DNA of 64,000 bases from Corallium rubrum (taxonomy: Eukaryota; Cnidaria; Anthozoa; Scleralcyonacea; Coralliidae), in contig CAXIUP010000176.1 in NCBI GenBank assembly GCA_964035015.1, positions 506,001-570,000 on the forward strand, read 5' to 3'. Below the pieces are notes generated by a model, which saw only the letters and a program-made list of their open reading frames with translations, did no database searches and was not told the origin of the DNA. How positions within the stretch are numbered: the stretch's first letter is position 1; every line of letters starts with the position of its first letter. This document shows, piece after piece, positions 32,429-64,000 of this stretch. The translations under genes and the position numbers were made by a program.

Positions 32429-32794
32429 GGGGCCGTTTACATGAATCCTGATTGAGTTTCAATCCGGATTGAACTCATTCTGCTTCTGATCAAACCCCTT
32501 TATCTGTTTACATGAATCCGGATTGAGTTCAATCGGTTTCTCATTCCGAATTGAAATCTCATTCCGGATTGAAATTTCGTTCCGGAATCATGTAAACGCG
32601 GTGCGAGTTTCATTCCGGAATGAAAAACGTGACAGAGAGGACAAGAACAAACAATGCATGAGTGTTTTCTAATATTTACGGATTTCAGGCGACAGGCGGA
32701 TTTCAATCCAGAAACCCAATTCCCATGTAAACACGGATTGACTTCGCTTTTCAATACGGATTAAAACTAAATCCGGACTCATATAAACGGCCCC
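32429..32794. mobile_element. Palindromic-word MITE, word AATCCGGATTGA
   Basis: Ends GGGGCCGTTTACATGA and the inverse of GGGGCCGTTTATATGA. Inside, GTTTACATGAATCCGGATTG and variants of ATTCCGGATTGAA recur in both orientations. Flanks are CAA and TAA, close to a TAA target duplication (PIF/Harbinger-like). Its right border touches the stop codon of the exon at 32794-32948. Confidence 0.65.
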
Positions 32795-32948
32795 TAAAAG
32801 AGAGAAAGGCTTGAAGTTGAAAGTTTGTCCTGTCTAGTAAATCTGTTCACACCTGAACGCAGCAAAGACACCCATTTCTCATTGATCCATCTTCCATAAC
32901 CATTCCAGATGACGCGACAACGTCTTTTACAAGGTATCTCCGACACAG
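32794..32948 (-). CDS. Probable last exon of a host gene
   Basis: TTCTTTTAG precedes the exon on the minus strand. The frame reads VSEIPCKRRCRVIWNGYGRW, INEKWVSLLRSGVNRFTRQD, KLSTSSLSLF, then TAG. It opens with two bases of a split codon, which fits the single base left by the exon at 33408-33563, giving one continuous frame across the intron. The paired cysteines and basic patch suggest an extracellular or nucleic-acid-binding tail; I do not recognise the family. The stop codon is made of TA from the flank and G of the adjacent MITE. Confidence 0.55.
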
Positions 32949-33054
32949 CTAAAAGAATAATTCTTTCAATGTTTGCATGGTGAAAAATTGTAATAGAAGT
33001 ACGAATTTGTGGTAACATGAACCATGCATGTTTATTATTTTTTGCTGAGCTATT

Positions 33055-33286
33055 CAGACAGACAGACAGACAGACAGACAGACAGACAGACAGACAGACA
33101 GACAGACAGACAGACAGACAGACAGACAGACAGACAGACAGACAGACAGACAGACAGACAGACAGACAGACAGACAGACAGACAGACAGACAGACAGACA
33201 GACAGACAGACAGACAGACAGACAGACAGACAGACAGACAGACAGACAGACAGACAGACAGACAGACAGAAGGACAGACAGACACG
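33055..33286. repeat. (CAGA)n microsatellite in intron
   Basis: About 54 perfect tetranucleotide units (33055-33270) with a few degenerate ones after it, lying between the two minus-strand exons. Long frames across it are artefacts of the repeat. Confidence 0.95.
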
Positions 33287-33407
33287 GGTGGACACACAAA
33301 GACACAGCTCACGGACGGACGGAGGGACAATCAAACGCAGGTAAAAACATATGGTAATGATAATGATGATAATAATGATGGTGGTAGAGTTCTGTACAGT
33401 ACATTAC

Positions 33408-33563
33408 CTTTTAAACGTTTATCTACATCGTCAGTTGTAGATGGTGCGGCAACATTAAGAATTTCATACGTTTGTAGTTTTTTCATTGCACAATTATCTC
33501 GCAGAATACCGATTTCGCTGCCAAGAGTTTTATTTATGAAGCTATCAATTATTATGTCCATAA
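33408..33563 (-). CDS. Internal host exon, unidentified
   Basis: TTTCATTTAG precedes and GTAATG follows on the minus strand; length 156. Two bases of a split codon, then MDIIIDSFINKTLGSEIGIL, RDNCAMKKLQTYEILNVAAP, STTDDVDKRLK, then one base. It splices in phase to 32948-32794. The acidic, helical content could be a coiled or linker region. Whether it belongs with the membrane-protein exon at 36814-37489 on the same strand is unknown. Confidence 0.6.
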
Positions 33564-33639
33564 CTAAATGAAATAAAAATTGAATTTTGTTAAGAAAATA
33601 TAGAACTACCCCGTTGTATGGGTTCATGTAACATATACA

Positions 33640-61256: not shown

Positions 61257-61350
61257 CTCATTCCTGTCCGGGGGCTTCCCCAGAGGTGAATAAAATCGTC
61301 TGGCGTTAGCCAGAATAAAATACTACAGACCAATTCGGACAAGAAAGAGT
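61257..61350 (+). mobile_element. 94-base MITE, copy 2 of a tandem pair
   Basis: Nearly identical to copy 1, TAA at both ends, 18 bases downstream of it. A third, inverted copy is at 52675-52768. Confidence 0.75.
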
Positions 61351-61419
61351 TAACAGGCCAGGCCGGCCTTTTATCCTTTTACCTGGCGTTTTTACACAGC
61401 CGCGCCAGTGGATAGCGCA

Positions 61420-61650
61420 CTGCAGCCTCGTTCCCAGGCTCTTTACTGCTGTCATACCATCTGTTGCATGGTCAGGGGGGTTCTGACTGTCACCTGCAAG
61501 TTTACTTAATCACCGTCGTGTGCAATTGTAAGCGTATATAATATCAAGATACTTGCCAACGACATTTATACTGCCCAATAATTATGCCTGTGAACACATA
61601 AAACACATCCGAGACAGAAAGACTTGATCAGACATCAACGCAGGCAGCTG
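61420..61650. repeat. Fragment related to the 17.2 kb TIR element
   Basis: AAGCGTATATAATATCAAGA, TACTTGCC, AACACATCCGAGAC and GACTTGATCAGAC match 17640-17755. Its left part (CAGCCTCGTTCCCAGGCTCT) resembles the CTCGTTCCCAG terminus seen at 28672 and 40679. Confidence 0.5.
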
Positions 61651-61654
61651 ACAA

Positions 61655-62818
61655 GATGTTCGACATAACGACATATGCTTGTTTTGTTTTCATTATATTT
61701 TCATGCTCGATGTATTCAGATGATCTGGAAGGTTGTGGTTTTTCAGCAGCACTTCTTTCTTTCTAAATATCTAAAAAAGTTATTTTACCTGGAGTCCGTG
61801 TTTGTTAAAATAATTGCATCAAAACATGCGTTGAATCCTCTTGTCGCGCTTGACTCTCAATTCAAAGCTTTCCTTCGCGTTTGTCTGCAGCCAAATATGA
61901 TGGGTAGAAGGTTTCTCTAATATATATCAGCCCTTTTTAGCCACGGGATATAGGGCTTCTCTTGTCTTGAAAACAATATTTCCGAAGAAACCGTCTGGCC
62001 AGTTGAAATGCTTAGACCAAACAGTGCGCCATACTGTATCTTTGCGTTCGCACTTAACATCCTAAGGGCATCATGGCATCCTCTGGCATCATTCTATTGC
62101 TTCTGGTATTAAATCTTCAACGTAAACTTCCCTATGAAGTATTGTACCGTTTTTAGGGTCTGGCTTGTTGAAACATCCGAATACAACACACCGCGAAGGT
62201 ATTCCGTCCTCAATTGCATACTAAACAACTGTAGTCGCAAATACAGTTTGTCCCGATTTGACGTCATCAGCCTTATTCGGACTCAGACTCTTTTCTCCCG
62301 GCCATGTTTTGAAAAAACATATTTTCGCCATGTTTAGAACCAGATATCTCGGGAAGTTTTCATCCGTTGAAGGAGTGTTATATATCGTTAGAATCATCTC
62401 AATACGGCCGATTTTGGGGAAAAAAATGAAAATTCTCGTATATGCACTTTAAATTGACACTAATGACAATTAAAACCTGGACTTCATTTTCTATGAGCAA
62501 TAGTCAATTGGTCATAAAACCTTGGGCATGTTGTCTAAATGTTTTAATAAATGGTGTGATTTATGAATTACGGTATTTGAGATATGGCTTTTGTTGTTTT
62601 TCGAGGATCATGGGGCAGCCCACTGAACTGCCTAGCTTACAACTCTGCTATACATTGTTTATTATACACATATATACCATGTCTTGTGTTTTACTCGATT
62701 CCTCTGAGTCAATTCAACTTGTTTCAATGGGTTAGTTTTTAGCGATTCATTACTGAGGAGATTGGTGTACAGGTATGCAGTTTTAAATGGAAAATAGAAC
62801 AATCTTTTGGTATTGTAG
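61655..62818. other. Non-coding stretch, no gene seen
   Basis: No recognised frame, repeat border or convincing exon. Short frames here have no family resemblance. Confidence 0.45.
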
Positions 62819-63908
62819 GAGGAAGAGAGTGGACAAAGGAAACAACTTGTAGAGCTTAGTATCGGTGACCTAAAGGAAAGATCTAAAATCTACAAGTGTA
62901 GCAACCTAACTAAATACCAGGAAAGTGTTAATACTGCAGCTTTCAAATTGTGTACTGGTGATGCCAAGCTCCTCTTAAATAAAGGAAAATTATTCGAAGA
63001 AGCCAGGAGAAATGTTGATTCAACTGGATACCAATATGCAAAAAAAAGTATCAAGATCAACTGTTTATGGTTCTGCCCAAAAGCCGTCTAAACCAAAGCG
63101 AAAATATGTAGGTGCTGAAGTTCGAGCTTCCCATGTTGCTGAGTTAAATGAAGGTATTTCCTCTCTTAAAGAAACGACGGAATTATTATGCAAACAAAAG
63201 GAGCAATACAGTAATGCAGAGAAATTTCTTCAGGCTGCAGATACCAACTCAACCATCCTTCAAAAGGGTCGGAAAAAATGGAAGCTTGAGAAAGAATTGA
63301 AAGTGCTGAAGAAAGCTGAATCTAAGTCCAAACGTTTGTCAAAGAAAAAGTGTCAGAGAAGTGCAAATAAAACTGATTCGCAAAGCAATGAGTCACAGGC
63401 AGGCAACGAGTCACAGGCAAGCACTGAAATAGTTAGCAGTGATAGTGAAAGTGAGATGGATTCCCAAGAAGCCATGTCAGGGCCAGCATTAGTAAGAGAA
63501 AATTGTACTTATGTTGCCAGTACTTCAACTGCCACATTAACACAGAGCAAAGCCAATAGTGAATCTATACAGGATTTTCAGGAATCCCCAAAATAAATTC
63601 ATTTTCTTTGGGTGGACAAAAACGAATGTCAATTCAATGATGAAGAATGCCTTCTTAAGTTTAGAAAATATTTTAAACAGAATCTCACTGAAGGATGCAA
63701 ATTGAACAACGATACATATGTAACATGTATCAAAGACATGACTTTAGTTCAGTACATTACTGCAGTCCAGAAACATTGTAATGATCTCAATCATGATCTT
63801 GATTGTCCAAAGTGCAAACCTACTATTATGGCTGCAAACATAATAATGGAAAAGGGGATTGTTCCGTTGTCATCAGTGTACACTGTAAAAACAAACTGGT
63901 TAAAATGA
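62819..63908 (+). pseudogene. Degenerate lysine-rich reading frame, unidentified, possibly multicopy
   Basis: GGTATTGTAG precedes, so 62819 may be an exon start. Frame 2 reads EEESGQRKQLVELSIGDLKE, CSNLTKYQESVNTAAFKLCT, GKLFEEARRNVDSTGYQYAK, then slips at a run of eight A (63040-63047) to VSRSTVYGSAQKPSKPKRKY, a coiled-coil-like part (GRKKWKLEKELKVLKKAESK) and a Ser/Glu/Gln-rich tail. TAA 63594 interrupts; the same frame goes on with NECQFNDEECLLKFRKYF and DLDCPKCKP to TGA 63908. The last stop lies inside the next repeat. No known family assigned. Confidence 0.5.
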
Positions 63909-64000
63909 CCAAAAAAAATTGGTCGTTTGGATGCATCTGAGACAACCAGTTTAAAATGGTCAAAACAACCAAAAAAATAATTGGTCAAAACAACCAAAAA
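63897..64000. repeat. Start of a palindromic-word repeat, word TTGGTC/GACCAA
   Basis: TGGTTAAAATGACCAAAA, AATTGGTCGTTTGG, CAACCAGTTTAAAATGGTCA, ATTGGTCAAAACAACC recur in both orientations up to the window edge. Probably the left end of another word MITE. Confidence 0.5.

What the first reader, a model, noticed from the sequence alone, without database searches (positions are those of the whole stretch)
32429..63997. A shared grammar links otherwise unrelated MITE families: flank phrase plus family-specific palindromic word
At least nine elements start with a phrase of the type (A)GGGCCTGTTTAYA, AGCCCTAATCAAACG, GGCCTGGTTCATACG, GCTGGTTTTCCACTAGGCGA or GACCCCATCCACATG. Each then repeats, many times and in both orientations, one short palindromic word that differs per family (AATCCGGATTGA; ACTTGCGATGACTTGCG; GGGTTACCCTA; AACCCGGGTTGACC; CCGGTGTACCGGGATG; TCGCTTCGCGCGA; TTCAACATGTTGAA; TTTAATTCGTCTGAATT; CCGATAAAAATCGG). 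Internal words are again joined to copies of the flank phrase (GTTTACATGA, TTTATAGG). Bodies are not homologous between families, yet layout and the TAA-type target site are. This suggests one transposition machinery (PIF/Harbinger-like by the 3-base target) acting on sequences whose internal words diverge rapidly but stay palindromic, perhaps because the transposase or host binds repeated subterminal words.
Basis: partly seen in the sequence, partly recalled or inferred. Interest (0 to 1): 0.8.

Follow-up and report, generated by a model that had tools for sequence, protein, structure and literature searches.

The report
Harbinger transposon ends with iterated recognition modules
Short jumping-gene remnants in what appears to be a coral genome share one end design with full-length Harbinger transposons: a fixed outer cap, then a family-specific word that is repeated without the cap near the ends, which looks like an array of docking sites for the transposition proteins.

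Summary
The layout is real and largely explained. The window lies in a 474-Mb genome, probably a coral. Word density exceeds every shuffle in 9 of 10 sequences tested. GGGCCTGTTTAYA occurs 1425 times genome-wide (reversed control 5); 1173 copies follow TWA. The genome has 103 matches to a PIF/Harbinger transposase. Of 17 transposase-bearing loci fetched, 8 showed two termini of this type, 3 one, 6 none. Element H looks like an internal-deletion derivative of one of them, L085.

Corrections: the repeated unit is the inner terminal repeat (phrase plus word). In the 8 two-ended elements 0 of 50 module alignments lie in the middle, and 0 of 17 distinct phrase-reaching modules keep the outer four-base cap. 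Palindromy is not general (dyad excess in 4 of 10). The outer 15 bp are alike in 43 of 43 distant transposase pairs; the next 22 bp in 7 of 43, and in 7 of 12 close pairs.

Best mechanism: uncapped internal modules bind the two-protein Harbinger machinery and only capped termini are cut. Binding and cutting are inferred, not shown.

The parts
32429..32794 (.). Element A, TIR GGGGCCGTTTAYATGA, word AATCCGGATTGA; flanks CAA/TAA; internal modules at about 32506 and 32595
   Evidence: best 11-mer 14 copies vs shuffle max 4
35541..36347 (.). Element B, TIR AGCCCTAATCAAACGAGAACGCAAGTCATC (first 30 bp identical at both ends), TSD TAA/TAA, word CTTGCGAT (not palindromic)
35577..36030 (.). Foldback element nested in B at TTAA (removed before the counts)
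36351..36750 (+). Element(s) C, terminus GGGCCTGTTTACAAGG after TAA, word GGGTTACCCTA; a second, capped start at 36610 after TTA; 3' end not found, the end given is approximate
   Evidence: genome copies L009-L011, L025, L027
39581..40554 (.). Element D, TIR GGGKGCCTTTAYACGAGCCCGGG, flanks TTA/TAA; interior 39847-40398 treated as nested
40558..41330 (+). Element F, terminus GACCCCATCCACATG after TAA; 3' end not found, the end given is arbitrary; cap resembles L082 (GACCCCGTTTACACTAG)
46440..47446 (.). Element J, word CCGATAAAAATCGG; inverted arms 46493-46529/47388-47428; terminus GCCGGGTGCACACGATACG only at the 3' side; limits approximate; nested 46660-47204 removed before the counts
52167..52671 (.). 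Element E, TIR GGGCCTGTTTATA, TSD TAA/TAA, word CCGGTGTACCGGGA
   Evidence: phrase+word pattern at 802 places genome-wide at <=1 mismatch, control 0
52771..53200 (.). Element G (outer copy) with a further copy G2 at 52906-53053, TIR like AGGCTGTTTTCCACTAGGCGA; contains a capped, TAA-preceded internal copy at about 53057, as expected of tandem insertion
57522..58609 (.). Element H, TIR GGCCTGGTTCATACGTCGCATTTAATTCAG, TSD TCA/TCA; looks like an internal-deletion derivative of L085
57734..58420 (.). Foldback element nested in H (removed before the counts and before the comparison with L085)
60880..61130 (+). Element I, terminus AGGCCTGGCCAAAG after TAA, word TTCAACATGTTGAA (true palindrome); 3' end not found, end approximate

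Best explanation
The elements are non-autonomous PIF/Harbinger transposons. Their shared grammar is the end architecture of transposase-bearing PIF/Harbinger elements of the same genome. Each end has three tiers. (1) A cap of about 4-6 bp (GGCC-like), next to the TNA target duplication and, with the exception of tandem or second copies in C and G, found only at the true ends. (2) A phrase of about 9 bp (TTYAYACG-like), conserved across the lineages seen. (3) A word of about 20 bp that differs between most lineages. Phrase plus word is repeated without the cap, in both orientations, within a few hundred bp of the ends. Mechanism inferred: the DDE transposase and its second, Myb-like protein bind the phrase+word modules; uncapped modules gather and orient the complex but cannot be cut, and only capped copies are cleaved and joined to TNA. 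Shown: superfamily, target, modules, absence of the cap inside, restriction to the ends, likely derivation of H. Inferred: protein binding, division of labour, the cutting rule, and parents for the other families.
For: Target: TWA before 1173 of 1425 GGGCCTGTTTAYA copies; TWA before 182 and TSA before 21 of 225 GGCCTGGTTCATACG copies; identical 3-bp flanks in 16 of 19 fetched GGGCCTGTTTAYA pairs (two of the 16, L010 and L011, are near-identical duplicates). Transposases: DDE_Tnp_4 and Plant_tran in 4 of 4 scanned from this group (L060, L063, L068, L085). Termini in 17 transposase-bearing loci: two ends in 8 (L063, L064, L065, L066, L067, L068, L080, L085), one in 3 (L076, L078, L082), none in 6 (L060, L077, L079, L081, L083, L084). 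Restriction: 0 of 37 alignments in the middle (28.5 kb) of 7 elements; recount with L085, 0 of 50 in 8 elements (both ends are queries, so a place can count twice; merged places 28). Missing cap: of 17 distinct phrase-reaching modules in 8 elements, 0 match 3 or 4 of the first 4 TIR bases (per-base 0.06-0.24) while positions 8-12 match 0.88-1.0; in 6 window MITEs 10 modules, 0 by the same ungapped count (0.10 per base), positions 8-12 0.9-1.0. Likely parent of H: about 286 bp of one H end near-identical to L085 (score 257) and about 110 bp of the other (77.5), shuffle maxima 17-21.5.
Confidence: 0.7

Rival explanations
1. The internal modules are debris of nested or tandem insertions and end duplications, with no function.
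For: MITEs here do insert next to one another (B/C, D/F, E/CMITE/G abut at shared TAA or TTAA; sequence), and two window elements, C and G, do contain capped second copies.
Against: Debris should keep cap and TSD; 0 of 17 phrase-reaching modules in 8 transposase-bearing elements match 3 or more of the 4 cap bases, and 0 of 50 alignments lie in the middle.
Confidence: 0.12
2. The modules are regulatory: sites where the element's own protein controls its promoters, or host-factor sites (GTTTACA resembles a forkhead site, recalled), rather than part of the cut-and-paste complex.
For: The transposase frame begins within about 250 bp of a terminus in L063, L066, L067, L080 and L085, and the partner frame within about 300 bp in L063, L080 and L085 (1.1-1.2 kb in L066, L067), so modules overlap likely promoters; MITEs would inherit arrays passively.
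Against: Gene-less MITEs (A, B, D, E) keep dense arrays; the phrase differs between families, which a single host factor would not follow.
Confidence: 0.15
3. Convergence: unrelated superfamilies share a GGCC..TTTACA-like terminus.
Confidence: 0.03

Closest known systems
PIF/Harbinger DNA transposons and Tourist-like MITEs (PIF, Ping/mPing, Harbinger3_DR)
   Same: TWA target duplication, DDE_Tnp_4/Plant_tran transposase, a second gene beside it in most elements seen, MITEs by internal deletion
   Different: Phrase+word modules iterated without cap near the ends; mPing and mPong share no internal promoting sequence (PMC9921582, passages). PMC4671723 (passages) says the Myb-class protein binds the transposon ends; the original papers were not seen.
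CACTA (En/Spm) TnpA-binding sites
   Different: Different superfamily, termini and TSD (recalled); I know of no description of those sites as the TIR minus its cap (recalled, not searched)
Sleeping Beauty inner direct repeats
   Same: Transposase site repeated internally, with preferred binding to the internal copy (PMC9921582)
   Different: Tc1/mariner; no arrays with a family-specific word (recalled)
CMITE of Acropora (PMC2872659)
   Same: Coral MITEs; three similar copies lie in this window
   Different: piggyBac-type, TTAA target, conserved interior with variable TIRs: the reverse pattern

Membership tests
PIF/Harbinger | 3-bp target duplication TWA (TNA) | tested here: met
   1173 of 1425 and 182 of 225 termini after TWA; identical flanks in 16 of 19 pairs. 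In the window B and E have TAA, G2 TTA, H TCA; A and D imperfect
PIF/Harbinger | DDE_Tnp_4/Plant_tran transposase in the parent element | tested here: met
   Met for H via L085 and for related termini L063, L068; no parent found for the other window families
PIF/Harbinger | Second gene with a Myb/SANT-like (MADF) protein | tested here: inconclusive
   Clear in L060; BESS motif in L068; weak in L080; none at E<=0.01 for the ORFs of L063, L066, L067, L078, L085; no ORF seen in L064, L065
PIF/Harbinger | Short terminal inverted repeat | tested here: met
   B, E, G2, H by unfiltered scan; A, D by alignment; not shown for C, F, I, and only inner arms for J
ISL2EU-like (DDE_Tnp_4 with HTH_Tnp_4, often THAP) | Termini of that group | tested here: not met
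   Boundaries of those loci read TATAGACCACTTGC.. and AATAGTCGG.. (domains); the group name is recalled
CACTA | CACTA termini (recalled) | tested here: not met
   Termini begin GGCC, GGGCC, AGCC, GACC and the like
piggyBac / CMITE | TTAA target with CCY-type terminus | tested here: not met
   Target TWA, termini as above; definition from PMC2872659

The most novel reading that the evidence does not exclude
In this genome PIF/Harbinger ends are modular: a near-universal cap+phrase read by the catalytic transposase and a fast-changing word read by the partner protein. Uncapped copies of phrase+word form docking arrays that cannot be cut. Changing the word while keeping the cap (families E, K and C share GGGCCTGTTTAYA but have different words; L085 differs in word from clade mates 48-57% identical) would create orthogonal transposition systems side by side in one genome and would settle which Harbinger protein supplies sequence specificity.
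Probability: 0.35. Interest if true: 0.7.

Novelty: new variant of a known kind. Interest (0 to 1): 0.5.

Why it matters
PIF/Harbinger is widespread and both of its proteins are needed for transposition, but the mechanism is not well characterised (PMC9710019, passages) and specificity may involve more than one DNA-binding domain (PMC9921582, passages). Here one genome offers 11 diverged transposase-bearing termini in which a part conserved in every pair and a part conserved mainly among close relatives can be separated by position, plus natural arrays of uncapped sites. That makes the division of labour directly testable by binding and swap experiments, and explains how dissimilar MITE families can share one layout.

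Tried and rejected
Palindromy as the organising rule: rejected as general. A 7.7-kb candidate between two GGGCCTGTTTAYA ends (L059): rejected; it holds two separate small MITEs around a piggyBac-like open frame (my reading of the ORF, not scanned). L038 as a grammar-bearing transposase element: rejected; the grammar MITE lies beside an ISL2EU-type element. PF13359 as entry point: the 7 of its hits that I scanned all carried HTH_Tnp_4, so I moved to the L060 transposase; L061 and L062, fetched with L060, look like that other group (my reading of the ORFs). PF26138 is not in the library. Two pattern scans of viral contigs found nothing. TIR rows: where the unfiltered scan gave several rows (L066 3, L080 2) I took the one with fewest mismatches; the only row for L084 lies partly inside its transposase frame and was dropped. 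A terminus-like match in L083 (5920+) could not be assigned. An earlier Mantel test (9 elements) suggested that only the word tracks the transposase (inner r 0.52, P 0.002; outer r 0.19, P 0.19); with 11 elements both do (outer r 0.55, P 0.0003; inner r 0.43, P 0.003), and with the 6 unfiltered ones outer r 0.57, P 0.02, inner r 0.39, P 0.11. I therefore claim only depth of conservation. One search counted one MITE module twice (11 rows); one search is the corrected count (10). Structure prediction of the second protein was not tried: the tool's description limits which loci it accepts. Literature: searches listed no title or abstract describing this architecture in PIF/Harbinger; I opened five papers (one half read, four by passages, PMC12595863 among the latter without use). 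Subscription journals and Repbase were not searched.
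Full report
Where the window lies. The window is G000:C188:506001-570000 of a 474-Mb genome in 312 contigs. It holds three copies resembling the CMITE of Acropora (47 of 59, 47 of 58 and 45 of 54 aligned positions identical; scores 32-34.5 against shuffle maxima of 13-14; consensus from PMC2872659, of which I read the outline and parts 1 and 2 of 4). 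The host is therefore probably a coral; no call names it.

Observation. The phrases are present. An unfiltered search for a TNA direct repeat with a 14-bp inverted repeat returns B, E, G2 and H among 13 rows. A and D have long inverted ends with imperfect flanks. Foldbacks nested in B, D, H and J were removed before counting. The best 11-mer exceeds all 60 shuffles in 9 of 10 sequences (nine elements, G twice, F not tested), while 10 of 11 foldback controls stay within their shuffle range. Dyads are in excess in 4 of 10.

What is repeated. Aligning an element's first 40 bp to its own interior shows copies of the inner terminal repeat, phrase plus word, without the outermost 5 or more bp, in A, B, D, E, H and I. 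G2 has none; C differs because it contains a second, capped start at 36610.

Superfamily. GGGCCTGTTTAYA: 1425 copies, reversed control 5; TWA-flanked 1173, control 0. By eye, the first 100 listed places held 19 facing pairs within 2 kb; all 19 were fetched, with one unpaired place. In 16 of 19 the two 3-bp flanks are identical TTA or TAA; L017, L019 and L021 differ. Three words follow the same terminus: CCGGTGTACCGG (E), AGCCGAGTTACCCGGC (a family K not seen in the window) and GGGTTACCCTA (C). GGCCTGGTTCATACG: 225 copies, TWA 182, TSA 21. Reading the lists, a set of H-type copies of about 750 bp carries TAA on the left and TTA on the right, perhaps as passengers in a larger repeat, so copies are not independent insertions.

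Transposase-bearing elements. The first family search (PF13359, 150 of 1077 candidates scored) led to ISL2EU-like elements with other ends. One hit, L060, is a canonical Harbinger pair: transposase with DDE_Tnp_4 and Plant_tran, neighbour with Myb_DNA-bind_4; no TIR was found for it. Its transposase gives 103 matches, some of them pieces of one gene. Termini in fetched loci: L063 GGCCCCRTTYACACGAGACCGGACG (TAA/TAA); L064 GGCCGGTTTACACGACAAGTG (ACA/TTA); L065 AGGCCCGTTTACACGACAAGCG (TAA/TAA); L066 GGCCCRGTTTATACGCCGTGC (TTA/TTA); L067 GGCCCGGTTCAAACGTCGAAC (TGA/TGA); L068 AGCCTGGTTCACACTAGCGAC at one end and AGCCTGGTTCACACTTGGAAAC at the other (TTA/TTA); L080 GGCCTGGTTTATACACCGTGC (TGA/TGA); L085 GGCCTGGTTCATACGTCGC (TAA/TAA); one end each of L076, L078 and L082, assigned by position beside the genes. 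None: L060, L077, L079, L081 (only a neighbouring 186-bp MITE), L083, L084. L063, L065, L066, L067, L068 and L080 came from the scan without a TIR-sequence filter; the other five came through the phrase, the terminus or a fuzzy outer consensus.

H has a likely parent. L085 is 5085 bp with the exact H terminus. One H end (nested insert removed) matches it over about 286 bp at near identity, the other over about 110 bp. L086 is a 601-bp stretch beside a second transposase match with the same terminus after TTA. L082 carries TATCCGGATTC-like words (<=2 mismatches) at about six places near its terminus, close to the word of A, and a GACCCC cap as in F: suggestive, not proof.

Modules. In 7 of 7 two-ended elements all 37 alignments above the shuffle threshold lie in the outer 400 bp of either end, none in the 28.5 kb between. 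A recount with L085 and fresh shuffles gives 0 of 50 in the middle of 8 elements, 28 merged places. No alignment in these 8 starts before TIR position 5. Of 17 distinct modules that reach the phrase, none matches 3 or 4 of the 4 cap bases; per-base matches are 0.24, 0.18, 0.06, 0.18, against 0.88-1.0 at positions 8-12. In six window MITEs (A, B, D, E, G outer, H; C, I and J left out for want of a 3' end) there are 10 such modules with 0.10 per cap base and 0.9-1.0 at positions 8-12; the one in G reads TAA-AGCTGG and is a capped tandem copy by eye. Instead of the cap, internal copies often have T-rich sequence followed by CG, GCG or TGA.

Interpretation. Insertion debris would carry caps and target duplications and would not avoid the middle; a single host factor would not follow phrases and words that change with the family. 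A binding array for the element's own proteins fits best. PMC9710019 and PMC4671723 (passages) state that both Harbinger proteins are required and that the Myb-class protein binds the ends; PMC9921582 (passages) cites TnpA of Suppressor-mutator and Sleeping Beauty as precedents for internal sites but finds no internal sequence shared by mPing and mPong. Hence 'new variant of a known kind'. That the cap makes an end cuttable is inference.

Noticed in passing
52670-52790; 61133-61353: Three CMITE-like elements (one, and a tandem pair), a group described from Acropora; they lie directly beside E, G and I at TTAA/TAA
   Followed up: partly
36345-36352; 40552-40560; 52669-52775: MITEs abut, sharing the TAA or TTAA at the neighbour's border (B/C, D/F, E/CMITE/G)
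   Followed up: no
56404-60217: A 3.8-kb inverted repeat (longest arm 693 bp at 99%) encloses H and its nested element
   Followed up: no
G000:C1:0.84-1.25 Mb: Ten Harbinger or DDE_Tnp_4 transposase matches cluster here; two near-identical C-type MITEs lie 7-8 kb from two of them
   Followed up: no
G000:C13:15540678-15554766: Three H-type copies of about 750 bp spaced about 6.7 kb apart, as if carried in a larger tandem repeat
   Followed up: no
36814-37563 (-): A 250-aa open frame with a hydrophobic stretch that looks NXPE-like to me (recalled, not searched)
   Followed up: no
L038 3150-3504: Another grammar MITE end: GGCCTTGCGTTTACACGATACCGGTAC with three further GTTTACACG copies next to ACCGG-type words
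   Followed up: partly
L059 1-125: A further family end: TTA GGGGGTGTTTATATGGAAGCGAGCCAGCC with words like GCTAGCC
   Followed up: no
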